Source: Staphylospora marina
Lineage (GTDB): Bacteria; Bacillota; Bacilli; Thermoactinomycetales; Thermoactinomycetaceae
NCBI RefSeq assembly: GCF_003856495.1
Contig: NZ_CP034118.1
Span: forward strand, 476,001 to 540,000
Direction of reading: 5' to 3'
DNA length: 64,000 nt
Below, piece by piece: positions 40,941-56,354 of the stretch. Position 1 is the stretch's first letter; the number at the start of each line of letters is the position of its first letter. Under the pieces are notes generated by a model, which made no database searches, was not told the origin of the DNA, and saw only the letters and a list, made by a program, of their open reading frames with translations. A program made the translations under genes and the position numbers.

Positions 40941-41083
40941 ATGTGTGAACGTCACTGTTGGAAGACCGGACCGTGTCTAGAAGTCGAACGAGGGTGCGAT
41001 GCGGGGAATCCCGTGATCTATCCTTGCATGGGGATGATGTTCCGACTCGTGAATCGAACAGACAGAATCAGGAGGAGACAGGC
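40941..41083 (+). other. Structured leader upstream of pnuC
   Basis: The 140 bases before pnuC can fold: ACGAG pairs with CTCGT around an inner ATGC/GCAT stem that holds the hairpin CGGG-GAAT-CCCG. pnuC leaders in other Firmicutes carry NAD+-sensing riboswitches, so this may be a regulatory RNA; the match to a known class was not established. Confidence 0.3.
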
Positions 41084-41782
41084 ATGCCGCTGAAAAACTG
41101 GAATTGGTTTGAAAAGATCTGGCTTTTGTCATTTTCCGGCGTGGCACTCATTCTTTCCGTGCTTTGGAAGGATACGCTGTTCGGATTCTCCGTCTTTCTT
41201 TCCGGCGTGATTTGCGTGGTGCTGGCGGCGAAGGGCAGCATCTGGACGTATGCTTGGGGCATGTACAACACGCTGGGGCATGCGTGGATCAGTTGGCAAA
41301 GCGGGTTGTACGGAGAGACCATGTTGAATGCGCTTTATTTCTTCCCCATGCAAATCGTCGGATGGTGGCTGTGGAGAGAACGCATGAATGAAGAGACGGT
41401 GCAAATGCGCAAGATCTCGCCTGCAGGAGGAATCGCGTTGGGAGTGTTGTGTGCACTGGGCACCTGGGGGTACGGGTGGTGGCTGTCAACGCTTCCGGGG
41501 CAACAGACGCCGTACATGGATTCTCTCACCAACGTGTTGTCGGTGGCGGCTCAAATCCTGATGGCGCTTCGCTATCGGGAGCAGTGGGCGCTGTGGATCA
41601 TCATCAACATGGTTTCCGTTGCGATGTGGAGCCTCCGCCTGACGGATGGTGCGGAAGAGGCGGCCACCATGGTGGCGATGTGGTCCGCGTACCTGGTGAA
41701 CAGCGTGTACGGATGGATCTCCTGGAGCCGTGGCGCCGATCGGGACATGAAGGAAGAGAAACACAGGGAGCTGACGGCATGA
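41084..41782 (+). CDS. pnuC: Nicotinamide riboside transporter PnuC
   Basis: 232 residues, about seven membrane helices. The PnuC family features are WGMYNTLGHAWISWQSGLYG, the aromatic MQIVGWWLWRERM and MDSLTNVLSVAAQILMALRY, with WIIINMVSVAMWSLRL. It imports nicotinamide riboside by facilitated diffusion, trapped inside by NadR phosphorylation. Start ATG 41084 follows AGGAGGAGAC. Its stop overlaps the nadR start (ATGA), which ties transport to the kinase. Confidence 0.92.
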   Translation: MPLKNWNWFEKIWLLSFSGVALILSVLWKDTLFGFSVFLSGVICVVLAAKGSIWTYAWGMYNTLGHAWISWQSGLYGETMLNALYFFPMQIVGWWLWRERMNEETVQMRKISPAGGIALGVLCALGTWGYGWWLSTLPGQQTPYMDSLTNVLSVAAQILMALRYREQWALWIIINMVSVAMWSLRLTDGAEEAATMVAMWSAYLVNSVYGWISWSRGADRDMKEEKHRELTA

Positions 41783-42813
41783 GGATCAAGAGGACGGGCC
41801 TTACCCTGGGAAAATTCGCCCCCTTGCACAAAGGACACCAGTACATGATCGAGACGGCCCTTTCCGAAGTGGATGAACTGGTCATTCTGATCTATGATGC
41901 GGCGGAAACGGAAATTCCGCTCAGCGTGCGGGCGGAGTGGCTCCGCCGTCTCTATCCGCAAGCGGTGGTGCTGGAAGCGTGGGACGGACCGCAGGAAGTC
42001 GGAGACACTCCAAAGATCCGGACGATGCATGAAGAATACATTCTCCGGAGAATCAAGGGCCGGAGAATCACCCATTTCTATTCAAGCGAGTTTTACGGAG
42101 AACATGTCAGCCGGCGATTGGGGGCGATCAACCGTCAGGTCGACCCGGGCCGGACCGTCTTTCCGGTGTCCGGAACCCTGGTCCGGGAAGATCCCTTCAA
42201 ATGGCGCGATTACGTGCACCCGCTCGTGTACCGGGATCTGATCACCGGCGTCGTGTTTCTGGGAGCGCCGTCCACGGGAAAATCCACGCTCGCGGAAGCG
42301 TTGGCCCGCAAGTACGGCACCGTTTGCATGCCCGAGTACGGCCGGGAATACTGGGAGGCTCACCAAGTGGACCGCCGCCTGACTCCGGAACAGCTGGTGG
42401 AGATTGCACGCGGTCATCTGGAGCGCGAAGAACGGCTCCTCACCTCGGCCAACCGGTATCTGTTCGTCGATACGAACGCCATCACCACGTACATGTTTTC
42501 CTTGGATTATCACGGATTTGCCCTGCCGGAGCTGGAAGAGCTCGCCCGGATGGCGGCGTCCCGTTATGATCTGGTCTTTTTGTGCGCGGATGACATTCCG
42601 TACGACGACACCTGGGACCGGTCCGGAGAAGTGAAACGAGCCGTTTTCCAGAAACGGATCATCGCCGATCTCAAACAACGGCGGATTCCGTACATCGAAT
42701 TGCGCGGCAATCTGGATGAGCGGATCGCCACCGTGGAGCGGGTGCTGGCCCGCTTCCGCAAGTATGACAGCCTCGGGGAATGGGCGCTTCGCGGCATTGA
42801 GGGACGGATGTGA
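41779..42813 (+). CDS. nadR: NadR: NMN adenylyltransferase / ribosylnicotinamide kinase
   Basis: 344 residues. The N-terminal nucleotidyltransferase domain has LGKFAPLHKGHQYMI (HxGH) and VSGTLVREDPFKW (the ISGTxIR motif). The C-terminal kinase domain has Walker A LGAPSTGKSTLAEAL at about residue 157 and a lid region CADDIPYDDTWDRSG. It lacks the N-terminal HTH of enterobacterial NadR, so it is an enzyme only. Together with PnuC it makes NAD from nicotinamide riboside in two steps. Translationally coupled to pnuC. Confidence 0.92.
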   Translation: MRIKRTGLTLGKFAPLHKGHQYMIETALSEVDELVILIYDAAETEIPLSVRAEWLRRLYPQAVVLEAWDGPQEVGDTPKIRTMHEEYILRRIKGRRITHFYSSEFYGEHVSRRLGAINRQVDPGRTVFPVSGTLVREDPFKWRDYVHPLVYRDLITGVVFLGAPSTGKSTLAEALARKYGTVCMPEYGREYWEAHQVDRRLTPEQLVEIARGHLEREERLLTSANRYLFVDTNAITTYMFSLDYHGFALPELEELARMAASRYDLVFLCADDIPYDDTWDRSGEVKRAVFQKRIIADLKQRRIPYIELRGNLDERIATVERVLARFRKYDSLGEWALRGIEGRM

Positions 42814-43716: not shown

Positions 43717-43753
43717 CTATTTTAAAAATTTGTTGTAAGATGAGGTGACCGGT

Positions 43754-43990
43754 TTGAACCCCTTCAAAAAGCTGGAAGATTTTCTGATGAAAGACGTCGT
43801 GAGCGGTTTGCTGGACATTATCACCCCACTGGCCATCATTGGAATCTTGGTCAGTGCCATCGGCATGTATCTGTCCACGGAAGAACATAACCGGGAACGT
43901 TTCAAGAAGAGCCTGATTTCCATTTCGATCGTCACCATCATTGCCTTCATGGCTCAGGGAATCATCAAATGGTTGGAAGTCAAATTCTGA
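43754..43990 (+). CDS. Small two-helix T4SS membrane subunit (VirB2/PrgF-like position)
   Basis: 78 residues. A short N-terminal amphipathic part (NPFKKLEDFLMKDVVSG) is followed by two hydrophobic helices (LLDIITPLAIIGILVSAIGM and SLISISIVTIIAFMAQGIIK) separated by the charged turn STEEHNRERFKK. Size, topology and first place in the operon fit the pilin-like/VirB2-type small subunit, but sequence alone does not prove pilin identity. TTG 43754 lies seven bases after GAGGTGA. Confidence 0.6.
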   Translation: MNPFKKLEDFLMKDVVSGLLDIITPLAIIGILVSAIGMYLSTEEHNRERFKKSLISISIVTIIAFMAQGIIKWLEVKF

Positions 43991-44329: not shown

Positions 44330-44998
44330 TTGGCGAAAAAGAAGAAAGCTCCGGAAATGACCGTTCAGGATTTGATTCCTGTCCGGAACATCTACGATTC
44401 GATGATCGAAACCACGGACAATCGCTTGGTCAAAGTGGTGTCCGTGACCGCGGTCAACACGCATCTCATGAGTCATTCCGAAGTGAGAGAGGTGCTGGAA
44501 GGATATGAAAACTTCCTGCGTTCACTGAAAAAGCCCATCCAGATCGCCCGGGTGTCGGAACCGGTGAATCTGAAAAAGTACATTGCCTCACTGACGGACC
44601 GGCTGAAGACGACAACCAACCCGTTCAAGCGACGCATGCTGGAGAGTTACATTGAATACGCCGAACAGCTTCAAAAAGACCGGGACATGATCAAGCGGAA
44701 CCGGTACATCATCATCGACGAGCCGTTCTCCGGGGAAGCGGACAAAGAAAAAGCCGTCCGCGAGCTGAAACGCCGCGTGGATGAACTCAGGCTGAATCTG
44801 GAGGACATGCTTTTCCGGCAAAAGCTGGAGGTTCACGTGCTGACGGACCAGGAACTCCGAAAATACCTGCACATGCTCTTTGACTACGAAAATGCTCAAT
44901 TGTATCACATGGAAGACAGGAAAGAGTATCCGTACATCATCGGACCGAGAAACCTGTTGGAAACCGCGGAAGCCATCCGGAAACGGGAAGAACTCTGA
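44330..44998 (+). CDS. Separate VirB4 N-terminal-type protein
   Basis: 222 residues, soluble, strongly helical and charged. It opens with the strand set TVQDLIPVRNIYDSMIETTD and LVKVVSVTAVNTHLMS that resembles the N-terminal region of VirB4/TraC-like ATPases before the P-loop domain, then long helices (RMLESYIEYAEQLQKDRDM) and NRYIIIDEPFSGEAD. No P-loop. It sits directly before the VirB4 ATPase and may be its split N-domain or docking partner. TTG 44330 follows GGGGGGAGA. Confidence 0.6.
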   Translation: MAKKKKAPEMTVQDLIPVRNIYDSMIETTDNRLVKVVSVTAVNTHLMSHSEVREVLEGYENFLRSLKKPIQIARVSEPVNLKKYIASLTDRLKTTTNPFKRRMLESYIEYAEQLQKDRDMIKRNRYIIIDEPFSGEADKEKAVRELKRRVDELRLNLEDMLFRQKLEVHVLTDQELRKYLHMLFDYENAQLYHMEDRKEYPYIIGPRNLLETAEAIRKREEL

Positions 44999-45013: not shown

Positions 45014-46900
45014 ATGTTCGGCTGGTTCAAAAAGAAAAAAGAGGAGCCGACGCAAACGTTGGAAAGTCTGATCGGGGACAATCGGGGCTTCCTGGACATC
45101 ATTTCTCCGGACAGCATCGAGGAGCAACCCAACTATATCCGGTTGGGCGGCAATTATTGCCGGACTCTCTGCGTCTCCTATTTCACCAACGACGTGCAGG
45201 CCAATTTCCTGCAAAACCTGCACAATATTCCCCATAACGTGTCCATCATTCATCACATCGAGCCCACGGACAGTGAAGCGATGATCAAGTCTTTGAACCG
45301 TGCGGTCATCGAATACCGTTCCCGGCTCAACGAGCCCGGCCTCCGGCCGATGGACGAGATCCGCATCACCAATGACCTGAAAGACGCGGAGATCTTGCTG
45401 GACAACCTCACTTCCGGCCGGTCGCAAATGTTCAACGAACACATGTACATCCACATCCAGGCAAGCAGTCTGGAAGAGCTGAATGAAGTCACGCTGCTGG
45501 TGAGAAACCACGTCAGCAAGACGATGAAACTGCTGATTCCCCATTATCGGATGTTGCCGGCCTTTCAATCGGTGCTGCCGCTGAGACAAAACCTTCTCAG
45601 TGACATGACATACAGGAACTTTGACACGGAATCCCTGTCTTCCCTGTTTCCGTTCGACGAGTGTGAGATTTTCTCCGAGAAAGGCATCATCAAGGGGAAA
45701 AACCTGAAAACCAACAGCATCGTCATCGTGGACCATGATCAGTTGCTGAATCGCAATGAAGTGGTCATCGCCACCAGCGGCGGGGGAAAATCCACCTATT
45801 TGTTCGGGGACATGATCCGTCGGTGGATGCAGGGAACCGTGATCCGGGTGGTGTGTCCGAAAGGGGAATTCGGAGACAAGGCCAAACAGCTGGGCGGGGA
45901 ATGGGTGAAGATTTCCCCGTTGAACGGCAACATCATCAACCCGTTCGAGATCATGTACTCCTTGATCCCGGAGGATGAAACGGGAGAAAAAGTGGCCGCG
46001 TCGCTGCTGCACCAGAAGATCAGCCGCCTCAAAACCATGTTCACCCTGATTTACAAGGACCTGAAAAACAAGCAGGTGGAACTGGCGCTGCTTGAAAAAT
46101 TGCTGGTGGAATTGTACGCGGACAAGGGAATCACCTGGGACACGGATTTTTCGACCAAAGGGCGCGAAGATTTTCCTATCATGATCGACCTGTACCGGAA
46201 AATCGCGCAGAAGATGGAAGAATCGGAGCAGTACCGGTTGCTGGAGGACCTGTATCAGGTGCTCTATCCGTATGCGGAAGGATCCTACGCCAAATGTTTC
46301 AACGGATACACCAACGTGGACCTGTCCAATGATTTCATTGTCTTCGATATTTCCGATTTGCGGGATGAGTCGGATTTGCAACAGGTGGCCATGTTCAATA
46401 TCCTCACCTTCCTTCAGGATGACGCGCTCAAGGACAAAACGACCGTCACGCAAATTTACGTGGATGAAGCCCACGTGCTCGCCGACCCGCGAAATCCGCT
46501 GGCCATGAAGTTCTTGTCCAACATGTACAAGCTGATCCGTTCGTTCCAGGGAGGCGTGACCAGCGCCACGCAGCAGGTGGGGGACTTCCTGTCCGCCGTC
46601 GAGGGATCCCGGAACTACGGGGAAGCGGTGATTCTCAACTCCATCTCCAAACTGTATCTTCCGATGCTCCGTGAAGAGATGAACGCCATCATGCAGCGGA
46701 CTTCCGAGGTGTTTTCGGAAGAGGAGCAACGGTTGCTGGTGGTCAAGGAGGAGGAGAAAGGAAAAAGTGCCGGTCGGGGCATTTATGTGGTCGGCTCCAA
46801 GAAAGTCAACCTGTATGTGGAGCTCACACCGGAAGAATTGAAAATCTGGGATCCGAAATGGTACCAGCGCAAATACGGTCGCAAAGGGGACACCATGTGA
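45014..46900 (+). CDS. VirB4/PrgJ-type T4SS ATPase
   Basis: 628 residues. Walker A is ATSGGGKSTYLFG (about residue 255), Walker B TQIYVDEAHVLAD (about 485), and the downstream FQGGVTSATQQVGDF matches the family's motif after Walker B. The N-terminal 240 residues include the substrate-side domain with PHYRMLPAFQSVLPL. It powers assembly or transport in the T4SS. ATG 45014 follows GGGGGTG by six bases; the GTG at 45005 lies inside that signal. Its stop overlaps the next start (GTGA). Confidence 0.9.
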   Translation: MFGWFKKKKEEPTQTLESLIGDNRGFLDIISPDSIEEQPNYIRLGGNYCRTLCVSYFTNDVQANFLQNLHNIPHNVSIIHHIEPTDSEAMIKSLNRAVIEYRSRLNEPGLRPMDEIRITNDLKDAEILLDNLTSGRSQMFNEHMYIHIQASSLEELNEVTLLVRNHVSKTMKLLIPHYRMLPAFQSVLPLRQNLLSDMTYRNFDTESLSSLFPFDECEIFSEKGIIKGKNLKTNSIVIVDHDQLLNRNEVVIATSGGGKSTYLFGDMIRRWMQGTVIRVVCPKGEFGDKAKQLGGEWVKISPLNGNIINPFEIMYSLIPEDETGEKVAASLLHQKISRLKTMFTLIYKDLKNKQVELALLEKLLVELYADKGITWDTDFSTKGREDFPIMIDLYRKIAQKMEESEQYRLLEDLYQVLYPYAEGSYAKCFNGYTNVDLSNDFIVFDISDLRDESDLQQVAMFNILTFLQDDALKDKTTVTQIYVDEAHVLADPRNPLAMKFLSNMYKLIRSFQGGVTSATQQVGDFLSAVEGSRNYGEAVILNSISKLYLPMLREEMNAIMQRTSEVFSEEEQRLLVVKEEEKGKSAGRGIYVVGSKKVNLYVELTPEELKIWDPKWYQRKYGRKGDTM

Positions 46901-47901
46901 TTTCAAAAGCCCTGGTGATCAAAGAACTGATCAGGTACGGAGCGTATGTGGCACTCGGCTTGTTGGTTGTGATCATATTAGGGGTTTTCGGCAGCAGCGA
47001 TGGTTCAGAGCAAGTCGCGGAAGCCGTCCATTGCCGACCTTCCGGCCAAACTCCCACCGTGGAGGAATTGAACAAAAAACTCCTCGGGAAGGGAGTTTTT
47101 GAGGGGAAAGCGGATGCCTTTATCGAAGCGGGAAAACGTCACGGGGTGGATCCCGTGCTCGTGGCGGCCATCGCCTTCCACGAGACCGGAATGGGTACTT
47201 CCCATATGGTACGCACCAAGAACAACCCGGGGGGATTGTATGCCAACGGGGGCTTCATGGAGTTTCCCACCTTGGACGACGGGATCGACAAAATGACCGA
47301 AAATCTGGCGAAGAATTACATCCGGCAAGGCCTCAAGACACCGGAACAGATCGGCCCCAAATATGCCCCGGTTCCCGATGAAAACGATCCGAACGGGCTG
47401 AACCGGCATTGGATTCCCAATGTGATCAGGTATGTCAATCAACTCGGGGGTCTGTCCTATGACTGTTCTCCTGTGGATCTGGAAAATCTGGGTCCGGTTT
47501 CCGCAAGCGGATTTCTTCGACCGATACCGACGAATTTCCGGATTACCAGCAAGTTCGGACCTCGGTGGGGCCGAATTCATACAGGGCTGGATTTTGCATG
47601 CCAGGGAGGGGTCACCCCGATCGTGGCTTCCAAAAGTGGAAGAGTGGCGGCTTCCCTGTTCGGGACACCGGGATCCGGGTTCTTCGGATACGGCGAAGTG
47701 GTGCTGGTGGATCACGGAGGCGGGGTCCAAACGTTGTACGCCCACATGACCCAAAGGAATGTGAACGTCGGCGATCAGGTGGCGCAAGGACAACAACTGG
47801 GCATTTGCGGTTCCACCGGCAACAGCACCGGTCCTCATCTGCACTTTGAAGTTCGGATCAATGGTGGAAGGTTTGATCCGCTGCCATTTTTGGAGCACTG
47901 A
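46897..47901 (+). CDS. Bifunctional murein hydrolase (glucosaminidase-like + M23), VirB1/PrgK role
   Basis: 334 residues. One N-terminal membrane helix (IRYGAYVALGLLVVIILGVF) then a GH73/lysozyme-like domain with AIAFHETGMGTSHMVRTKNN (catalytic Glu in HETG) and GGFMEFPTLDDGIDKM, and a C-terminal M23 LytM endopeptidase domain: zinc ligands in HTGLDFAC and HLHFEV, with TLYAHM. This fusion opens the wall for the secretion channel, as CwlT or PrgK do in conjugation systems. GTG 46897 overlaps the virB4 stop. Confidence 0.88.
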   Translation: MISKALVIKELIRYGAYVALGLLVVIILGVFGSSDGSEQVAEAVHCRPSGQTPTVEELNKKLLGKGVFEGKADAFIEAGKRHGVDPVLVAAIAFHETGMGTSHMVRTKNNPGGLYANGGFMEFPTLDDGIDKMTENLAKNYIRQGLKTPEQIGPKYAPVPDENDPNGLNRHWIPNVIRYVNQLGGLSYDCSPVDLENLGPVSASGFLRPIPTNFRITSKFGPRWGRIHTGLDFACQGGVTPIVASKSGRVAASLFGTPGSGFFGYGEVVLVDHGGGVQTLYAHMTQRNVNVGDQVAQGQQLGICGSTGNSTGPHLHFEVRINGGRFDPLPFLEH

Positions 47902-47918: not shown

Positions 47919-48434
47919 GTGAACAAAGCCCTGGTTTACGGTACGATCTTGGGGGCGCTGTTGGTCGTTTCCCTGACCGGCAACGCCGTTTTGTACTCGG
48001 AGAACAGCCGGCTCAAAGAGACGGTGGACAAGCTTCAGGAGCACGATCGGGCCACCGGGGTTGCCAGGGAGTTCGTTCTTGCCCTGATGGGAAAACCGGG
48101 TCCGGAACAGGAGAAGAACATCCGGGCCATTTCCACAAGAAAAGCCCAAAACAAAATCTTTGAAGAGGATCCGCACGGCGAACAGGGACCGGCCGAGGGA
48201 GTGGAACCGTCCGTCACCATTATGAGGACCTACTGGAACCGGGTGAACACGGACAAAATTAACGTGATCGTCCGCTTCCGCATCGACTTCAGCGTCGGAA
48301 ACGGCGGTACGACGGGTTTGTATGAAATGGGAGTGGACGTGATCCGGGAGGGGGATGGTTGGAAAGTGGACGATTATGACTTCGAGGAGATGCAAGGAGA
48401 AAGCGACCGGCCGGGAGGGGGAGATCATGAGTAG
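47919..48434 (+). CDS. VirB8/PrgL-like single-pass membrane protein
   Basis: 171 residues. An N-terminal membrane helix (VYGTILGALLVVSLTGNAVL) is followed by a short coiled stretch (ENSRLKETVDKLQEHD) and a domain of about 110 residues with the NTF2-like pattern AREFVLALMG, YWNRVNTDKINVIVRF and VIREGDGWKVDDYDFEE. This is the layout of VirB8/TcpC-type proteins that build the T4SS extracytoplasmic scaffold. GTG 47919 after GAAAGGGTG. The last eight bases overlap the next gene. Confidence 0.75.
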   Translation: MNKALVYGTILGALLVVSLTGNAVLYSENSRLKETVDKLQEHDRATGVAREFVLALMGKPGPEQEKNIRAISTRKAQNKIFEEDPHGEQGPAEGVEPSVTIMRTYWNRVNTDKINVIVRFRIDFSVGNGGTTGLYEMGVDVIREGDGWKVDDYDFEEMQGESDRPGGGDHE

Positions 48435-49380
48435 GCTCCGGAAGTGGCTCCTTCTGTTCTGCATGTTTGCGGTTCTCCTGATCATCAATCCCGGCGTCGC
48501 CAGTGCGGAAGAGATCGATTTCAAATGCGGTACATTTGATCCGGGGTGCCATATCGATCAGTGGTTGGCGAATATTGCCGTATCCACCACGAAAAAAGGG
48601 GTTGAATTCATTGCGAATCTGGCCAAAGAACCGAGTAAGTTACTCAGTAATACAAAGGTAAGAGAATTTAAAGGATATTTTGAAAAAGCGGCTTGGTCAT
48701 TCATTACGGTTTTTTTCCTCTTCCATCTGGTGCGGGTCCTTGCCATGTACTGGGTGGATGAAGATTTGGTGCTTTTCAAACGGATGTTGGTCAAGTTGAT
48801 CATTACGGTGACCATGTGTACCGGATATACATGGGCAATGACTGAGATGACAGCAGTCGCCAATGATACCATGATGGGGTTCGCGAAATTGGAGTTGTCG
48901 GTCACTCGAACAAATTTGTTGTTACAGGTGTTTAAAATACAACGGGGGTTCGTCATCATTTTGGCCCTGATATTTGCCATCTTGTTGATCATTGTGGCCA
49001 TTCAGGTGGCCATCCGGGCAGCGGAGTTGGCGTTCCTGTTCATTTCCGGTCCCTTTGCCATCGCCACCAATCTGAATGAAAATTTCAATCTGTTTCCCGC
49101 ATGGTGGCGAAGCTTGTTGTCAATTCTGATTACCCAGGTATTCCAAATCATCATGCTGTCCCTCACCATCCAGTTGTTCAGCGATGTGCGCATCGATAAC
49201 GATGCCAGCCTGACCAATTTCATCTGGGGAATGGGGATGATGGTTCTCACCCTTAAATCACCTTCGTACCTCAAGGAATTGATGTACTCCACGGGAGCTG
49301 GGCAAGCAGTGGTCGGAGCAGCCGCAAAGTCCGGGATGGAGATGGGAAAAGCCGTGTTGAGCCGGCTGATGAGAAAATGA
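48427..49380 (+). CDS. VirB6/TrbL-like polytopic T4SS channel protein
   Basis: 317 residues. A cleavable-looking signal (LRKWLLLFCMFAVLLIINPG, ending VASAE) leads to an extracytoplasmic part with two cysteines (DFKCGTFDPGCHIDQW). Five or more membrane helices follow, and the family-typical AFLFISGPFAIATNLNENFN and PAWWRSLLSILITQVFQI. It ends with a glycine/alanine-rich GAGQAVVGAAAKSGMEMGKA. Equivalent to PrgH/ConG. The middle (48640-48960) is AT-richer than its ends. ATG follows GGGAGGGGGAGATC. Confidence 0.82.
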   Translation: MSRLRKWLLLFCMFAVLLIINPGVASAEEIDFKCGTFDPGCHIDQWLANIAVSTTKKGVEFIANLAKEPSKLLSNTKVREFKGYFEKAAWSFITVFFLFHLVRVLAMYWVDEDLVLFKRMLVKLIITVTMCTGYTWAMTEMTAVANDTMMGFAKLELSVTRTNLLLQVFKIQRGFVIILALIFAILLIIVAIQVAIRAAELAFLFISGPFAIATNLNENFNLFPAWWRSLLSILITQVFQIIMLSLTIQLFSDVRIDNDASLTNFIWGMGMMVLTLKSPSYLKELMYSTGAGQAVVGAAAKSGMEMGKAVLSRLMRK

Positions 49381-49409
49381 ATAACCAGGAGAGATCCTCT
49401 CCTGGTTAT
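49381..49409. terminator. Terminator of the first T4SS unit, shared with the convergent lipoprotein gene
   Basis: Perfect 13-bp stem ATAACCAGGAGAG with a three-base loop directly after the virB6 stop, then TGTTTCTTCTT. It overlaps the stop codon of the lipoprotein gene on the other strand. Confidence 0.85.
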
Positions 49410-49747
49410 TGTTTCTTCTTGTATGTGCATTTAAGTTTGCCATCAACCAGAAGCAACGTACCATCTTCCTGAAGTTTAAGCTCAATGACTTCAGTCAAGA
49501 CCTTCAGATCATATGTATATTTGTCGCCTTCCAGTTTTTTGATCGTCCCGGTAACGTCATCATTGTCTTCTCGTTCCATATGGAGCAATCCTTTTTCATA
49601 AAATATCAGTTCAATGGGGCAGAGCCAATTATCATTGGTTATGCGGGTCCATTCCCCGATAAACTGATCTTCGTCTTGGGAACATCCCGTGACGGACATG
49701 AGAGCCAACACCGAAATGACAAGGAACACCCACGCGTTTCTTTTCAA
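49406..49747 (-). CDS. Small lipoprotein, tandem copy 1
   Basis: 113 residues. Signal peptide KRNAWVFLVISVLALMS with lipobox VTGC, then QDEDQF(I)GEWTRI and a beta-rich domain with YEKGLL, GTIKKLEGDKYTYDLKV and EVIELKLQEDGTLLL, ending CTYKKKQ. It looks like a small beta-barrel similar in layout to lipocalin-like lipoproteins. I place the start at TTG 49747 with AAAGGATG eight bases upstream; the ATG at 49756 is inside that signal, and the paralogue shows the same arrangement. Function unknown; an exclusion or immunity role is conceivable from position only. Confidence 0.7.
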   Translation of the reverse strand: MKRNAWVFLVISVLALMSVTGCSQDEDQFIGEWTRITNDNWLCPIELIFYEKGLLHMEREDNDDVTGTIKKLEGDKYTYDLKVLTEVIELKLQEDGTLLLVDGKLKCTYKKKQ

Positions 49748-49904: not shown

Positions 49905-50249
49905 TCATTGTTTCTTCTTGTATATGCATTTCTCCTTACCGTCTCTTGACAAGAACACAGTCTGATCTTCCTGAAGTTTGAGCTGAATGACTCTTGTTTC
50001 GACCTTCAGATCAAATGCGTAATTGTCGTTTTCCATCTTCTTGATGGTACCGGTATAATCCATGCCATGATCAATCACCAAGGTGAGCAAGCCATTTTCA
50101 TAAAATTTCAGTGCGGAAGGGCAGATGGGATCATCATCATTGATGCGGGTCCATTCACCGCGAAACTGATCTTCGTCTTGGGAACATCCCGTGACGGCCG
50201 CGAGAACCAGCACCGAAATGAAGAAAAGCACCCAAGCGTTTCTTTTCAA
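49905..50249 (-). CDS. Small lipoprotein, tandem copy 2
   Basis: 114 residues, a paralogue of copy 1: KRNAWVLFFISVLVLAAV with lipobox VTGC, CSQDEDQFRGEWTRINDD, GTIKKMENDNYAFDLKV and an end CIYKKKQ. Identity is high at both ends and lower in the middle (CPSALKFYENGLLTLVIDHG against CPIELIFYEKGLLHMERED). TTG 50249 follows AAAGGATG as in copy 1. The pair lies antisense within the T4SS locus. Confidence 0.7.
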   Translation of the reverse strand: MKRNAWVLFFISVLVLAAVTGCSQDEDQFRGEWTRINDDDPICPSALKFYENGLLTLVIDHGMDYTGTIKKMENDNYAFDLKVETRVIQLKLQEDQTVFLSRDGKEKCIYKKKQ

Positions 50250-50380: not shown

Positions 50381-51232
50381 ATGACGGCGTGGGACGTGTT
50401 GCGGGATCGTGTGAGTGACGGTGTGGCGGAGCTGCTCGCGGAATGGTTCCGCTTGTGGCTGGAACGAAAACACCGGGAGAACAGGTCGGCGGAAGAAGCA
50501 TACGCGGCACACAGGGAAACGCTGAATTCACTGGAGGAGCGGGTAAAAAAAGAGCTCAAGGATCACGAACGGCAACCTTCCGATGCCGTTCTGACCAAGG
50601 CGGAGGCGTTCGTGTCCCTCAAAACGATGGAACGGGAAGAATGGGTCCTCGAGTTCGAACAAGCCCGGCAGACCTCCATCCAAACGGGGAGATCCGCGGA
50701 AGAAACGTTTCATGAGCGTCTGAAAGCCAGACTGATTCATCAGGTCATGGACCGTCCTGCCGGTACGTTGGTTCAGGTGAACGCAATCGTGGAACGGGTG
50801 GAGAAAGTCAAGCGAAATCTGTGGAGCATGGATAAAGACATCAACGAACGTCTCGGCCATCTGTACCGGATGCACATGGAAGGGAAAATCGGCAAAGAAG
50901 AGTTTGTCGGGAAGCGGGACGAATTGTTGAAAGACAGAGATGCCGTTCTGCTTCGGAAAGACAAGTGTTTGGGACTGGAAAAAAGGCTTCAACTGAAGCT
51001 GCAGCAGGAACTTCAATCCATCAGTCCGGGAGTGCGAACGGAGAGACTGAGTCTGCGTCAGACGTGGGAACGGATCGCGATTATCAAATCGGGACAATTG
51101 ATCCACGCGGTGGAAGGCAAGAGGGAAACTCCGGATCAGGAGCGAACGTCCGACCGATCCCGGTCTGATCAAGATCGTTCCCGACCGGACAGGGACGCAG
51201 GCAGTAAGGATGCTATTTCTTTGGAACGATGA
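50381..51232 (+). CDS. Coiled-coil cytosolic protein of the T4SS locus
   Basis: 283 residues, almost all helical and highly charged; no membrane segment, no known domain. Helical repeats include LERKHRENRSAEEAYAAHRE and KEEFVGKRDELLKDRDAVL, and the end is a run of Arg/Asp/Ser (SDRSRSDQDRSRPDRD). The ATG at 50381 follows GGGAGGGG. It is the first gene of the second unit and lies immediately before VirD4, so it may be a coupling-protein adaptor or substrate-presenting factor; this is inference from position. Confidence 0.6.
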   Translation: MTAWDVLRDRVSDGVAELLAEWFRLWLERKHRENRSAEEAYAAHRETLNSLEERVKKELKDHERQPSDAVLTKAEAFVSLKTMEREEWVLEFEQARQTSIQTGRSAEETFHERLKARLIHQVMDRPAGTLVQVNAIVERVEKVKRNLWSMDKDINERLGHLYRMHMEGKIGKEEFVGKRDELLKDRDAVLLRKDKCLGLEKRLQLKLQQELQSISPGVRTERLSLRQTWERIAIIKSGQLIHAVEGKRETPDQERTSDRSRSDQDRSRPDRDAGSKDAISLER

Positions 51233-53246: not shown

Positions 53247-54530
53247 ATGAAACGCATACCAATGGGAGACGGGACTCTGACCATTGACGGAGATCAGATC
53301 TTCTATCGCATTCCCGCGAAAGATTGCAACGTGACCCGCGAAGAGTTGATTGAAATCGAGGATTTACCGGGCATCGGTTTCCGGGCAAAAGCCCGGTTTA
53401 CGGAAGACGAAAGCCAGTTGGAGTTGCACTTTGTTCCCGAGGAGAAATTCGTACCGTTTGATCGGATCCGCAACGATTGGTTTCAGGACGTTTCCGTCCG
53501 GCTGACCATTTCGCGCAACTTGCTGCTGATCGCCGACTATTTCATGCACAGGCCGCAATGGGTCACGCTGTTTCACCCCATGAATTTCTTCGTGCACGAG
53601 CAAGACGGCACCGTGTTGGTCCTTTACCGGGGACTGAAGGGACAGATGCCGGCACCGGGATATGAGGAAGAATCGCTGGCGGAACAGGTGAAGCGGCTGA
53701 TTCTGCTCCTGTTCACCTCTTCAAAGTATGAGGAGCTCTTGCTCAACGGGAACAGTTATGCCGCTCGCCGGTTGATCGAAGCCTACCGCCCGCTCGTCAG
53801 GAAATTGCTGAAGGCCCGCGAGTTGGAAGAGTTGCAGCAAGTCATGGACGAAGCGATCGAAGAACATGCGCGGGAGATGGAACAGAAGGAAGAGGCTTCC
53901 CAGGCGGCCGGAGCTTCGGAGAAAAAACCGATCCCCTGGCTTCCCGTGGCGGGCGGGGTGGTCGGGCTGTTGGCGCTCATGGCGGTATTGTGGATGGATC
54001 CGGAGAGCGCTCCCCCGGAAGAATCGGCCTTGCCAAGGGAGTATGTGGACAGTCTCCGGGCGATGGCCATCCGCGATACCCGGTGGCTCACCCGTTCCCT
54101 GGAGCAACTGGATGATCAGGAACTGAAATCCCTGAGCCCGGATGACCGGCAAAGTGCATTGGAACTTCTTGTGTTCATCGGGGACATCGACCGCGTGAAC
54201 AAAGTGGATCCGGAGTTTATGGCGAATTTCGCGCGGAAAGAGCAAAAGATCAAAGAGCTGCGATTTGAAAAAGCCGTCTATCAAAAAGACAACGGATTGA
54301 TCACCGAACTGTGGAACCAGATTTACCTGACTCCCCGCCGTTACAAAATCGCCGTGGAGGCTTTCGCCCATCTCGGCAAGTATGAAGAGGCAAAGAAAAC
54401 CGCCGAACAAAGCAAAGACCACCGTCTGGTGGAATGGGTGCAAAAACAACAATCACAGCAGCAATCCGGCGGTCAACAAAAGGCGAATCCGTCAACACCA
54501 CAGCAGACATCGACCCAAAAAAACTCGTGA
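53247..54530 (+). CDS. EssB/YukC-like pseudokinase membrane protein
   Basis: 427 residues with the three-part layout of EssB/YukC of type VII secretion. First an N-terminal pseudokinase-like domain: LTISRNLLLIADYFMHRPQW, LFHPMNFFVHEQDGTVLVLY, the RGLKGQMPAPG step and LFTSSKYEELLLNGN. These match the order of EssB segments (L-PDELFF, RGLQN, FxxLxxGN). Second, one membrane helix WLPVAGGVVGLLALMAVLWM (about 230-250). Third, an extracytoplasmic helical domain LPREYVDSLRAMAIRDTRWL to RRYKIAVEAF and a Gln-rich end. No kinase residues are evident. ATG 53247 follows AGGGGGATGTGGG; the GTG at 53202 overlaps the virD4 stop. Confidence 0.75.
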   Translation: MKRIPMGDGTLTIDGDQIFYRIPAKDCNVTREELIEIEDLPGIGFRAKARFTEDESQLELHFVPEEKFVPFDRIRNDWFQDVSVRLTISRNLLLIADYFMHRPQWVTLFHPMNFFVHEQDGTVLVLYRGLKGQMPAPGYEEESLAEQVKRLILLLFTSSKYEELLLNGNSYAARRLIEAYRPLVRKLLKARELEELQQVMDEAIEEHAREMEQKEEASQAAGASEKKPIPWLPVAGGVVGLLALMAVLWMDPESAPPEESALPREYVDSLRAMAIRDTRWLTRSLEQLDDQELKSLSPDDRQSALELLVFIGDIDRVNKVDPEFMANFARKEQKIKELRFEKAVYQKDNGLITELWNQIYLTPRRYKIAVEAFAHLGKYEEAKKTAEQSKDHRLVEWVQKQQSQQQSGGQQKANPSTPQQTSTQKNS

Positions 54531-54687
54531 ACGGTCTTGCTCCGCATTGCTGAACAGACTGAAAGGAATGATCAGAAGAATGAGAGGGATCTTGCACTCC
54601 GGGGTACGAATGATCGATCCAACCGTGGGGACGAAGACATGGGTTTGAACATGTAATAAAAAAATGAATCAACAAGGAGGATTTATG

Positions 54688-54999
54688 ATGTTGAAATTTG
54701 ACGAAGAGGTAATGAAAAGGGAATTAATGAAGCGGCTCAATTATGGCGAAAGAGGGGCTGAATCTGTCATGGAAAAGTTGCGGAATCTGGATGATCAACT
54801 GCAGCCTGTCTTGGATCGATGGCTGGAAGGGGAAGATGAACCGGATGTGGCCGTCAATGGAGTGACGTTGGGGATGGTCAGGAAATACATTGACCGTAAT
54901 TTCTATTGGGCCATGCGTTATCTCTCCAGTTTTGCGGAGTCTGCAGAATTTGCAGCATTATTTCTCGAGGATCCGATACAATTCGGAAGAATACGTTGA
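54688..54999 (+). CDS. Tandem small protein, repeat unit 1
   Basis: 103 residues, cytosolic, family unknown to me. It reads MLKFDEEVMKREL, then KLRNLDDQLQPVLDRWLEGE, DEPDVAVNGVTLGMVRKYID and a C-terminal helix. The pattern 'LD.RLQPhLDRWLEGE.PDhxVxGhTLxMhxxxxxxxFxxAhxxLS' is shared by all three neighbours. AAGGAGGATTT precedes the start; ATG 54685 is equally placed. Located between two EssB-like genes. Confidence 0.75.
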   Translation: MLKFDEEVMKRELMKRLNYGERGAESVMEKLRNLDDQLQPVLDRWLEGEDEPDVAVNGVTLGMVRKYIDRNFYWAMRYLSSFAESAEFAALFLEDPIQFGRIR

Positions 55000-55018: not shown

Positions 55019-55330
55019 ATGCTCAAATTTGACGAAGAGGTATTGAAGAGAGAATTGATGAAACGGCTCAATTATGGCGAAAGCGGAGCTGAATTTATCA
55101 TGGAAAAGTTGCGGAATTTGGATGACCGACTGCAGCCTGTCTTGGATCGTTGGCTGGAAGGGGAAGATGAACCGGACGTGGCTGTCAACGGAGTGACGCT
55201 GGGGATGGTGAGGAAATACATAGACCGCGATTTCCTTTATGCGATGATCAGATTATCCCGTTATGCAGAATCAGAAGAATCTGCGGCACGCTTTCTCAAT
55301 AATCCTGAGCGGTTCAGAATGAGAAGATGA
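55019..55330 (+). CDS. Tandem small protein, repeat unit 2
   Basis: 103 residues, same family as unit 1: MLKFDEEVLKRELMKRLNYG, KLRNLDDRLQPVLDRWLEGE, RKYIDRDFLYAMIRLSRYAE and the end RFRMRR. ATG 55019 follows GGGGAGAGGGG. It is closest to unit 1 in its first half and to unit 3 in its last third, as expected from stepwise duplication. Confidence 0.75.
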   Translation: MLKFDEEVLKRELMKRLNYGESGAEFIMEKLRNLDDRLQPVLDRWLEGEDEPDVAVNGVTLGMVRKYIDRDFLYAMIRLSRYAESEESAARFLNNPERFRMRR

Positions 55331-55354: not shown

Positions 55355-55744
55355 ATCCTGCGCTTTGATGAACAGGCTTTGAAAAGGGAATTGGTGAAGC
55401 GGGCCGGTTATCCCGAAGAATCAACCGAATATGTCATTGAAAAATTGAGGAATTTGGACGATCGTCTTCAGCCGGTCCTGGATCGCTGGCTGGAAGGGGA
55501 AGATGAACCGGACGTGGCCGTCAACGGAGTGACGTTGGCGAAGGTGAGGAAATACATGGACCGCGAGTTTCTTCGTGCGATGATCAGATTATCCCGTTAT
55601 GCAGAATCAGAGGAATTCGCGGCACGCTTTCTCGAAGATCCGGATCGGTTCAGAATGAGGAGATGTGATGTGAGCCGGCTGCGATTTTCCTGGGTGGAAG
55701 CAAACCAATACAGGAGAGGGGACGATCATGGCCAGCGGAACTGA
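55355..55744 (+). CDS. Tandem small protein, repeat unit 3, with degenerate start and read-through end
   Basis: Aligned with units 1 and 2, the start codon falls on ATC at 55355, eight bases after an ideal AAAGGAGG, where the others have ATG. Either ATC is used, or translation begins at TTG 55379 (MKRELVKRAGYPEES), which would remove eight residues. The units' common end FRMRR is not followed by a stop here: the frame runs on for CDVSRLRFSWVEANQYRRGD and a few more residues and overlaps the next gene by 17 bases. It may be a decaying copy. Confidence 0.55.
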   Translation: MLRFDEQALKRELVKRAGYPEESTEYVIEKLRNLDDRLQPVLDRWLEGEDEPDVAVNGVTLAKVRKYMDREFLRAMIRLSRYAESEEFAARFLEDPDRFRMRRCDVSRLRFSWVEANQYRRGDDHGQRN

Positions 55745-56354
55745 GAATCAGATGCAACGGCAGAAGATCATCGGTTGGATTTCGCTGGGGGGAGGAATCG
55801 CCGGGTTGATGGCGTTGATGATGATGTTGTTTTCCGGCGGTTCGGAAGAACCCGTTCATGCCGAGGGATCCCTCCCGAGGGAATACATTGATGCGTTGCG
55901 GGCGGTTTCCGCCAGAGATTACCGGCTGATGAGTGAGGAATTGGCCAAGCTGGACGTTGAGGAGCTCAAGGCGCTGTCTCCCGAAGACCGGAAGTCGGCG
56001 TTGGAAATGCTCCTTTTTATCGGGGAAGTCGACAAGGTGAACCAGACGGATCCCGAATTCCTGGACCGTTTGGCCGAGACGGATCCGTGGGTGGGGGAAT
56101 TGCAGTTTGAAAAGGCGGTTCACATCGGAAATGCGAAAGCGATCGCCGGCATGTGGAAACAGACGTACATGACTCCCCGGAGATATAAAATCGCGGTGGA
56201 GGCTTGCGTGAAAATCGGTGATTGGCAAAACGCGGAAGAAGCCGCCAAGTCGAGCGGAGACCAAACGCTGGTGAATTGGGTTCAGGAGCAAAAACAGAAA
56301 CAAACGCAGCAAAAGCCGGCCGGACAGAATTCGGCGCCGGCGGGTTCTTCCTGA
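55728..56354 (+). CDS. EssB-like protein lacking the pseudokinase domain
   Basis: 208 residues, a paralogue of the C-terminal half of the protein at 53247. It has a short cytosolic start (ASGTENQMQRQK), one membrane helix IIGWISLGGGIAGLMALMMM, then LPREYIDALRAVSARDYRLM, LSPEDRKSALEMLLFIGEVD, MTPRRYKIAVEACVKIGDWQ and a Gln-rich end, each matching the larger copy segment by segment. The pseudokinase half is absent. ATG 55728 follows AGGAGAGGGG. A terminator follows. It could be a competing or complementary subunit. Confidence 0.75.
   Translation: MASGTENQMQRQKIIGWISLGGGIAGLMALMMMLFSGGSEEPVHAEGSLPREYIDALRAVSARDYRLMSEELAKLDVEELKALSPEDRKSALEMLLFIGEVDKVNQTDPEFLDRLAETDPWVGELQFEKAVHIGNAKAIAGMWKQTYMTPRRYKIAVEACVKIGDWQNAEEAAKSSGDQTLVNWVQEQKQKQTQQKPAGQNSAPAGSS

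What the first reader, a model, noticed from the sequence alone, without database searches (positions are those of the whole stretch)
53247..54530. EssB-like pseudokinase subunit coupled to VirD4
The segments ADYFMHRPQW, LFHPMNFFVHEQDG, RGLKG and YEELLLNGN follow the order of the EssB/YukC pseudokinase domain, then one membrane helix and a helical outer domain. EssB normally works with EssC, EsxA and EssA. Here the only nearby motor is a VirD4/VirB4 pair. It may be the receptor or regulator of a coupling ATPase.
Basis: partly seen in the sequence, partly recalled or inferred. Interest (0 to 1): 0.8.

Follow-up and report, generated by a model that had tools for sequence, protein, structure and literature searches.

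The report
EssB-like scaffold in a conjugation-type machine
A membrane protein related to a core part of one bacterial secretion machine (type VII) is here built into a different machine (type IV, the kind used for gene transfer), and relatives in many Bacilli suggest that this is a recurring part and not a one-off borrowing.

Summary
ORF 53247-54530 (427 aa) matches Pfam YukC/EssB above its cut-off (42.6 v 27.4 bits); its model is a kinase-like domain, linker/membrane helix and outer helical domain. Best PDB matches: TraF of plasmid pIP501, EssB, YukC. The genome has no EssC over cut-off and no WXG100 hit. The gene follows VirD4 by 41 bases, after a VirB2-B3-B4(split)-B1-B8?-B6 operon. Of 23 family genomes, 7 hold this VirB4 type; all 7 have the EssB-like gene on the VirD4 contig. 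Of 21 matching genomes elsewhere in the class, 15 have it within 1.4 kb of EssC; of the other 6 (no EssC), 4 lie in T4SS loci, 2 in Flp-pilus-like loci. Not wholly new: Kuhlmann et al. (2026) showed that TraF is an EssB/YukC structural homolog, but wrote that no other T4SS has one. Profile comparison here links TraF to this family by sequence (E 4e-7), and relatives sit on several Bacillales plasmids. Two relatives (G001, G009) probably serve an EssC system in trans, so the lineage is not T4SS-exclusive. Likely role: scaffold docking VirD4/VirB4 on the channel; a VirD4-specific receptor role is untested.

The parts
53247..54530 (+). EssB/YukC-like (TraF-type) pseudokinase - TM - outer helical domain protein, 427 aa
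51274..53205 (+). VirD4 coupling ATPase, CD1115 family
   Evidence: NF045973 1.2e-130, PF02534 5e-104
50381..51232 (+). coiled-coil protein (CC family), before VirD4
   Evidence: relatives in Hazenella (5.5e-26) and on the G020 contig (1.2e-12) by phmmer; no Pfam family above cut-off
43745..43990 (+). VirB2-like small membrane protein
   Evidence: position, and 36-45% identity to genes in the same place in L024, L027, L028
44003..44317 (+). VirB3-like
   Evidence: pRE25 TraC 8e-4
44330..44998 (+). VirB4, N-terminal part as its own gene
   Evidence: 57-60% identity in L024, L027, L028
45005..46900 (+). VirB4, P-loop ATPase part
   Evidence: PF19044 9.2e-16; pRE25 TraE 1.4e-61
46858..47901 (+). 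VirB1-like glucosaminidase + M23 peptidase
   Evidence: PF01551, PF01832
47919..48434 (+). probable VirB8-like protein
   Evidence: position and one TM start only; 25% identity in L024; no Pfam match
48355..49380 (+). VirB6/TrbL
   Evidence: PF19597 3.7e-27; pRE25 TraL 9.8e-7
49406..49747 (-). small lipoprotein-like ORF
   Evidence: ORF with lipobox-like start, role unknown
49905..50249 (-). paralog of the lipoprotein-like ORF
   Evidence: relative in Hazenella, 4.8e-7
54685..54999 (+). ~104-aa paralog 1
   Evidence: AF2 of paralog 2 pLDDT 90.8, helical, no PDB match
55019..55330 (+). ~104-aa paralog 2
55379..55744 (+). ~104-aa paralog 3 (start shortened)
55728..56354 (+). paralog of the TM + outer domain of the EssB-like protein, no pseudokinase domain
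   Evidence: 48% identity to residues 225-413, alignment A4

Best explanation
It is the TraF-type subunit (EssB/YukC superfamily) of a Gram-positive T4SS with pIP501-like gene set. A kinase fold without catalytic residues sits in the cytoplasm, one helix crosses the membrane, a TPR-like helical domain lies outside. It most likely works as a dimeric scaffold: the inner domain docks the VirD4/VirB4 motors and the outer domain the VirB8/VirB6 channel parts. Computed here: fold, family, topology, linkage to the T4SS, absence of EssC and WXG100 in this genome. Inferred: dimer, binding partners and scaffold role (by analogy with TraF and YukC), and lack of kinase activity (N113 and G129 are kept, the catalytic and metal-binding Asp seem absent; the kinase motif is recalled).
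For: YukC above cut-off. PDB profile search: 4ano 1.3e-7, 6z0f 3e-7. Foldseek best 8cba TraF-N 8.1e-8, next 9e-5; VIA Z 4ano 18.5, 6z0f 18.5 (rmsd 29.7), 8cba 17.6, 9qks 16.4, 4ann 15.9, best other kinase 15.0. TraF of pRE25 against the 15-row profile: score 58.4, E 4e-7, 346 columns, against at most 19.0 for 11 other Tra proteins and 22.3 for the best of 60 shuffles. Window-type VirB4 in 7 of 23 family genomes, the same 7 that have CD1115 VirD4 over cut-off plus the EssB-like protein. In 4 of the 6 EssC-less genomes outside the family the gene lies in a T4SS locus. Priestia plasmid: TrbL - EssB/YukC - VirD4.
Against: No interaction, transfer or kinase data for this protein. In G001 and G009 the lineage's only EssB-like gene found is far from a T4SS, and those genomes have an EssC/WXG100/YukD locus without an EssB near it, so some relatives probably serve EssC. 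G022 and G019 keep further copies (3 of 3 in G022 away from any CD1115 VirD4, 1 in G019). G002 and G011 have CD1115 VirD4 without a match to the profile. Model confidence is moderate.
Confidence: 0.7

Rival explanations
1. VirD4-specific receptor or regulator: the pseudokinase domain binds VirD4 or its cargo and gates the coupling ATPase, as YukC's pseudokinase domain contacts the FHA domain of YukB/EssC (cited in PMC13037476).
For: VirD4 and the EssB-like gene are less than 300 bases apart in 4 of the 7 family T4SS genomes (window, Hazenella, G006, G010); also adjacent in Priestia pPmC-129-1 and G332, where only the outer half is present.
Against: In G019 the VirB operon lies between them and in G118, G247, G341, Paenibacillus and Halobacillus the gene follows VirB6 and one more gene instead. 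TraF binds TraM(VirB8) most strongly (PMC13037476). No FHA partner was sought in the window's VirD4 beyond Pfam (none).
Confidence: 0.2
2. A stranded or degenerate T7SS EssB that has no tie to the T4SS.
For: Pfam YukC match; relatives in G001 and G009 sit in genomes with an EssC locus.
Against: Intact gene, no EssC or WXG100 in this genome, 7 of 7 co-occurrence with this T4SS, tree position apart from 15 EssC-adjacent EssBs.
Confidence: 0.03
3. A cell-surface exclusion or recognition protein of the element and not a part of the machine.
For: Outer-domain-only paralog next door and small lipoprotein-like genes near by.
Against: TraF is essential for transfer in the donor system (PMC13037476); full-length profile kinship to TraF.
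Confidence: 0.04

Closest known systems
TraF of conjugative plasmid pIP501 (Kuhlmann et al. 2026, PMC13037476; PDB 8cba), compared here through TraF of the related pRE25
   Same: Pseudokinase fold, one TM, outer helical domain, encoded with VirB4 (split), VirB1, VirB6 and CD1115 VirD4; profile kinship over 346 columns.
   Different: TraF has no Pfam YukC match, the window protein has; TraF lies between VirB4 and VirB1 genes on a plasmid with a MobQ relaxase, the window gene follows VirD4 on a 2.7-Mb contig with no MobA/MobL relaxase in the genome and has an outer-domain-only paralog.
EssB/YukC of T7SSb (PDB 4ano, 4ann, 6z0f)
   Same: Pseudokinase fold and sequence, bitopic layout.
   Different: No EssC, no WXG100; TIGR03926 cut-off not reached; separate side of the tree from 15 EssC-adjacent EssBs; one such EssB (G204) aligns to the profile over the pseudokinase only, 160 columns.
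Mycobacterial conjugative plasmids needing T4SS and T7SS (Ummels et al. 2014; seen only as cited in PMC13037476)
   Same: T4SS and T7SS-type parts in one transfer system.
   Different: There a whole T7SSa is present; here only an EssB-like subunit.

Membership tests
EssB/YukC protein family (PF10140) | Profile score over the curated cut-off | tested here: met
   42.6 v 27.4 bits, residues 50-214
EssB/YukC protein family (PF10140) | Pseudokinase fold like 4ano/6z0f | tested here: met
   VIA Z 18.5 to both
T7SSb EssB (functional subunit) | TIGR03926 equivalog cut-off | tested here: not met
   48.2 v 229.75 bits
T7SSb EssB (functional subunit) | EssC and WXG100 substrate in the genome | tested here: not met
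   EssC not over cut-off, WXG100 absent in G000
TraF-type T4SS pseudokinase subunit | Pseudokinase fold close to TraF-N | tested here: met
   8cba first in Foldseek, E 8.1e-8; Z 17.6
TraF-type T4SS pseudokinase subunit | Sequence kinship over both domains | tested here: met
   hhalign E 4e-7, 346 columns, with controls; plain BLASTP of TraF finds the window protein at no useful score
TraF-type T4SS pseudokinase subunit | Encoded with a pIP501-like T4SS | tested here: met
   VirB4 1.4e-61, VirD4 1.1e-98, VirB6 9.8e-7 to pRE25
TraF-type T4SS pseudokinase subunit | Essential for transfer; binds VirB8-like protein | not testable with these tools
   needs bench work
Conjugative element | Relaxase encoded with the T4SS | tested here: inconclusive
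   MobA/MobL (PF03389) absent from the genome; other relaxase families not searched genome-wide

The most novel reading that the evidence does not exclude
In this and related Thermoactinomycetaceae the MobA/MobL-less chromosomal T4SS is a protein delivery machine that shares a toxin-like cargo repertoire with T7SS-type systems, the EssB-like subunit being the common docking part. In Hazenella the ~104-aa family of the window occurs in tandem arrays both beside the T4SS-EssB locus and beside an FtsK/WXG100 locus, in both cases next to genes for a shared N-terminal motif, two of which carry a metallopeptidase-like domain; the small proteins would be immunity or adaptor proteins.
Probability: 0.18. 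Interest if true: 0.85.

Novelty: new variant of a known kind. Interest (0 to 1): 0.6.

Why it matters
[quoted passage not shown] These data point to a wider lineage of EssB-like proteins in Bacillales T4SSs, give a sequence bridge between TraF and EssB, and show hints of exchange between EssC and VirD4 as partner motor within one lineage. That makes a shared docking part of T4SS and T7SS (and perhaps Flp-type pili) testable, with harmless thermophilic versions for structural work.

Tried and rejected
Stranded T7SS remnant: judged unlikely for the window, but two relatives probably do serve an EssC (see report). First genome-contig scan with the single protein found no relative, the second found 3 loci; the viral-contig scan found none. 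The ~104-aa proteins: no Pfam or NCBIfam match of weight, no plasmid match, no PDB fold match at E <= 0.001. CC domain as an export signal: hhalign 30.4 (Hazenella metallopeptidase-like C-terminus) and 34.5 (G020 relaxase C-terminus) against shuffle maxima of 17.0 and 19.3, but shuffles do not keep coiled-coil periodicity and the CC-like gene of G019 did not match (13.4): a lead only. The metallopeptidase label itself is weak (DUF6782 24.4 bits, cut-off 27).

Rows dropped before counts: of 13 of 23 family genomes with a profile match at E <= 0.001 I count 11, dropping G003 and G016 (21.8 and 19.8 bits, about 35-65 kinase-core columns), and weak second matches in G018, G019, G001. VirD4: 13 of 23 at E <= 0.001, 9 over cut-off. 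VirB4: 9 of 23 match at 1e-10, 7 with 65% identity or more. Not in the tree: G118 (gene in two frames), G341, G332 (outer half only), the Planococcus and B. velezensis proteins, and the plasmid hits that I did not open; 9 of the 15 T7SS rows come from one genus and are near-copies; TraF is a long branch that meets another long one, so its place is unsure. The T4SS rows are not one clade: the label needs 6 changes. VIA's YukC row has rmsd 29.7, the two domains lying at another angle. My notes say that G118 has VirD4 on the EssB contig; that is wrong, its CD1115 VirD4 is on another contig.

Full report
What is there. The ORF at 53247-54530 (+) encodes 427 aa. Pfam YukC/EssB matches residues 50-214 with 42.6 bits (cut-off 27.4); NCBIfam T7_EssB gives 48.2 bits, far under its equivalog cut-off. 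A profile of 15 relatives (A1) finds EssB 4ano (1.3e-7) and YukC 6z0f (3e-7) first among PDB sequences; 9 of the 15 match Pfam YukC on their own at E <= 0.01. The AlphaFold2 model (mean pLDDT 75.1, pTM 0.51, five sequences) has a kinase-like part to about residue 221, a low-confidence linker and membrane region, and helical hairpins at 264-407. Foldseek's best match is TraF-N of pIP501 (8cba, 8.1e-8), then ordinary kinases from 9e-5. VIA-align puts EssB 4ano (Z 18.5), YukC 6z0f (18.5, rmsd 29.7), TraF 8cba (17.6), a T7SSb core unit (16.4) and EssB 4ann (15.9) over the best other kinase (15.0). N113 and G129 are invariant in A1; I read them as the catalytic-loop Asn and the Gly of DFG with the Asp residues missing (motif recalled).

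Surroundings. Upstream on the same strand are genes for VirB2-like, VirB3-like, VirB4 in two parts, a glucosaminidase/M23 enzyme (VirB1-like), a probable VirB8, VirB6/TrbL, a coiled-coil protein, and CD1115-family VirD4 (1.2e-130), which ends 41 bases before the EssB-like ATG. Downstream are three ~104-aa paralogs and a 208-aa paralog of the TM and outer domain only, 48% identical to residues 225-413. The genome (2.75 Mb, 2 contigs, 99.8% complete) has one YukC match, no EssC over cut-off, no WXG100 and no MobA/MobL relaxase; other relaxases were not searched.

Rule or chance? Of 23 family genomes, 11 have the EssB-like protein (13 by the call's own tally; two kinase-core matches dropped), 9 have CD1115 VirD4 over cut-off and 7 have VirB4 at 65% identity or more. 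These 7 (G000, G006, G010, G013, G018, G019, G020) all have both others, with EssB and VirD4 on one contig in 7 of 7 (VirB4 is on another contig in the fragmented G006). Against 4 of 16 genomes without this VirB4, one-sided Fisher p is 0.0013; shared ancestry makes that optimistic. VirD4 and EssB are under 300 bases apart in the window, Hazenella, G006 and G010; three genes lie between in G018; the VirB operon lies between in G019; in G020 they are at the two ends of a 57.6-kb contig whose ends carry the same repeats, so about 3 kb apart if it is a circle. G020's contig has a MobA/MobL relaxase next to VirD4. G005 (Seinonella) has only a broken VirD4 beside the gene. Against the rule: G002 and G011 have CD1115 VirD4 and no profile match, though the gene after VirD4 in G002 aligns weakly to the pseudokinase part (hhalign E 1.8e-4; no Pfam match).

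Outside the family. Of 398 class genomes 29 match A1 at 1e-8, 21 of them outside the family. In 15 of the 21 an EssC over cut-off lies within 1.4 kb of the match. The other 6 have no EssC: G118, G247 and G341 have the gene at the end of a VirB operon, about 1 kb from VirB6; G332 has only an outer-half relative directly before VirD4; G378 and G244 have it in Flp-pilus-like loci (prepilin peptidase, FHA, PP2C and kinase genes; Flp pilin). CD1115 VirD4 is in 4 of these 6, on the same contig in 3. The matches of G118, G247, G341 and G332 are mainly to the outer domain, and the G247 protein has no Pfam YukC match.

Plasmids. The window protein hits 1 plasmid record; the pOM18, G247 and G019 members used as queries hit 27, 70 and 15 records, many over the outer domain only. 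Of 7 records opened, 6 have T4SS genes in the stretches read (pOM18, pLW1071, pPmC-129-1, Planococcus XJ11, Paenibacillus pPlas3, Halobacillus); in pOM18 VirD4 is 14 kb away; B. velezensis p1_DKU_NT_04 shows none annotated within 12 kb. In pPmC-129-1 the public annotation reads TrbL, 'type VII secretion protein EssB/YukC', VirD4, with 93.7 bits for YukC. The Geobacillus, Planococcus, Paenibacillus and Halobacillus proteins have no Pfam YukC match; for Paenibacillus the profile comparison gives E 6.7e-17 over 402 columns.

Descent. In a tree of 38 rows the 15 EssC-adjacent EssBs form one side of a 100/100 branch; the window pairs with Hazenella (100/100) in a 15-row set of family rows plus pOM18 (99/95). 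The T4SS rows are not one clade (6 changes of label), because copies away from a T4SS lie among them. A check made at the end bears on this: G001 and G009 have EssC, WXG100 and YukD-like genes on other contigs, and tblastn of 38 EssB rows finds no EssB next to them (in G009 the contig ends near by). A gene beside the lone EssB-like gene of G001 has its relative beside EssC in G009 (35% over 241 aa). So these two members probably serve an EssC system from a distance. Their EssC is 1350 and 1353 aa, and FHA is not among the 25 best Pfam matches shown. The lineage thus seems to have changed partner motor; the root and direction are unknown.

What is known. Five full-text searches gave one paper on the point, Kuhlmann et al. 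2026 (PMC13037476; seen: abstract, Introduction, 12 found passages, Discussion part 1 of 2; the other papers only as listings). TraF of pIP501 has a pseudokinase crystal structure, is essential for transfer, was isolated with 12 of 14 Tra proteins tested and binds TraM(VirB8) most strongly; the authors state that no TraF homologs were found in other T4SSs and suggest capture from T7SS. TraF of the related pRE25 against A1: score 58.4, E 4e-7, 346 columns; 11 other Tra proteins at most 19.0, best of 60 shuffles 22.3, reversed 19.9. BLASTP alone does not show this. pRE25 shares VirB4 (1.4e-61), VirD4 (1.1e-98) and VirB6 (9.8e-7) with the window. I therefore call the window protein a TraF-type T4SS subunit of the EssB/YukC superfamily; the statement that TraF stands alone does not hold on these data.

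How it probably works. By analogy, a dimeric bitopic scaffold: the inner domain docks VirD4/VirB4, the outer one VirB8/VirB6. A VirD4-specific receptor is possible (0.2). The outer-domain-only paralog might form mixed dimers (speculation). The cargo is open: DNA transfer is shown for pIP501 and likely for G020's element.

Bold reading. In Hazenella six ~104-aa relatives lie in an array beside the T4SS-EssB locus, some next to metallopeptidase-like genes, and further ones (E 1e-20 to each other's group) lie in an array beside an FtsK-type ATPase and a WXG100 protein on another contig; a short motif of the gene beside that array recurs next to the small genes of the first locus (E 4e-5, 5e-5). 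This fits a cargo/immunity or adaptor set shared by a T7SS-type and this T4SS system. It is unproven, and the small proteins have no known fold match.

Noticed in passing
L020:805-7705 and L097:10735-13354 (Hazenella): Tandem arrays of the window's ~104-aa protein family at two loci, one with T4SS-EssB, one with FtsK-type ATPase and WXG100.
   Followed up: partly
L081:4331-10020; L082:7483-10749: EssB-like genes in Flp-pilus-like loci of two Bacilli without EssC or CD1115 VirD4; the L081 protein scores 85 bits for YukC.
   Followed up: partly
L030:8926-12392; L032:9140-12090; L024:9092-12140; L029:9637-12461: EssB-like gene next to a lipoprotein-like gene with a similar KKxGAT-type start; in L030 and L032 between an hfq-like and an AAA ATPase gene, without T4SS.
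   Followed up: no
L083:11025-12599 (G002): Gene after VirD4 aligns weakly to the pseudokinase part of the profile (E 1.8e-4) though the genome has no profile match.
   Followed up: partly
window 50381-51232; L085:4751-8536; L020:4940-9514: CC coiled-coil family; its C-terminal part may recur in a plasmid relaxase and metallopeptidase-like proteins, possibly an export signal.
   Followed up: partly
window 40958-42813; L020:16514-18228: PnuC-like and NadR-like genes lie beside the T4SS-EssB locus in both genera (by eye from the ORFs), hinting at an old chromosomal site.
   Followed up: no
L027:9505-17636; L028:1606-12474: Two species of one genus keep a VirB2-B3-B4-B6-VirD4-EssB cluster next to an rlmH-like and an HtrA-like gene, with no MobA/MobL relaxase in the genome.
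   Followed up: no
L095:8522-12574; L096:8997-13058: EssC of 1350-1353 aa with no FHA among its 25 best Pfam matches and no EssB beside it.
   Followed up: partly
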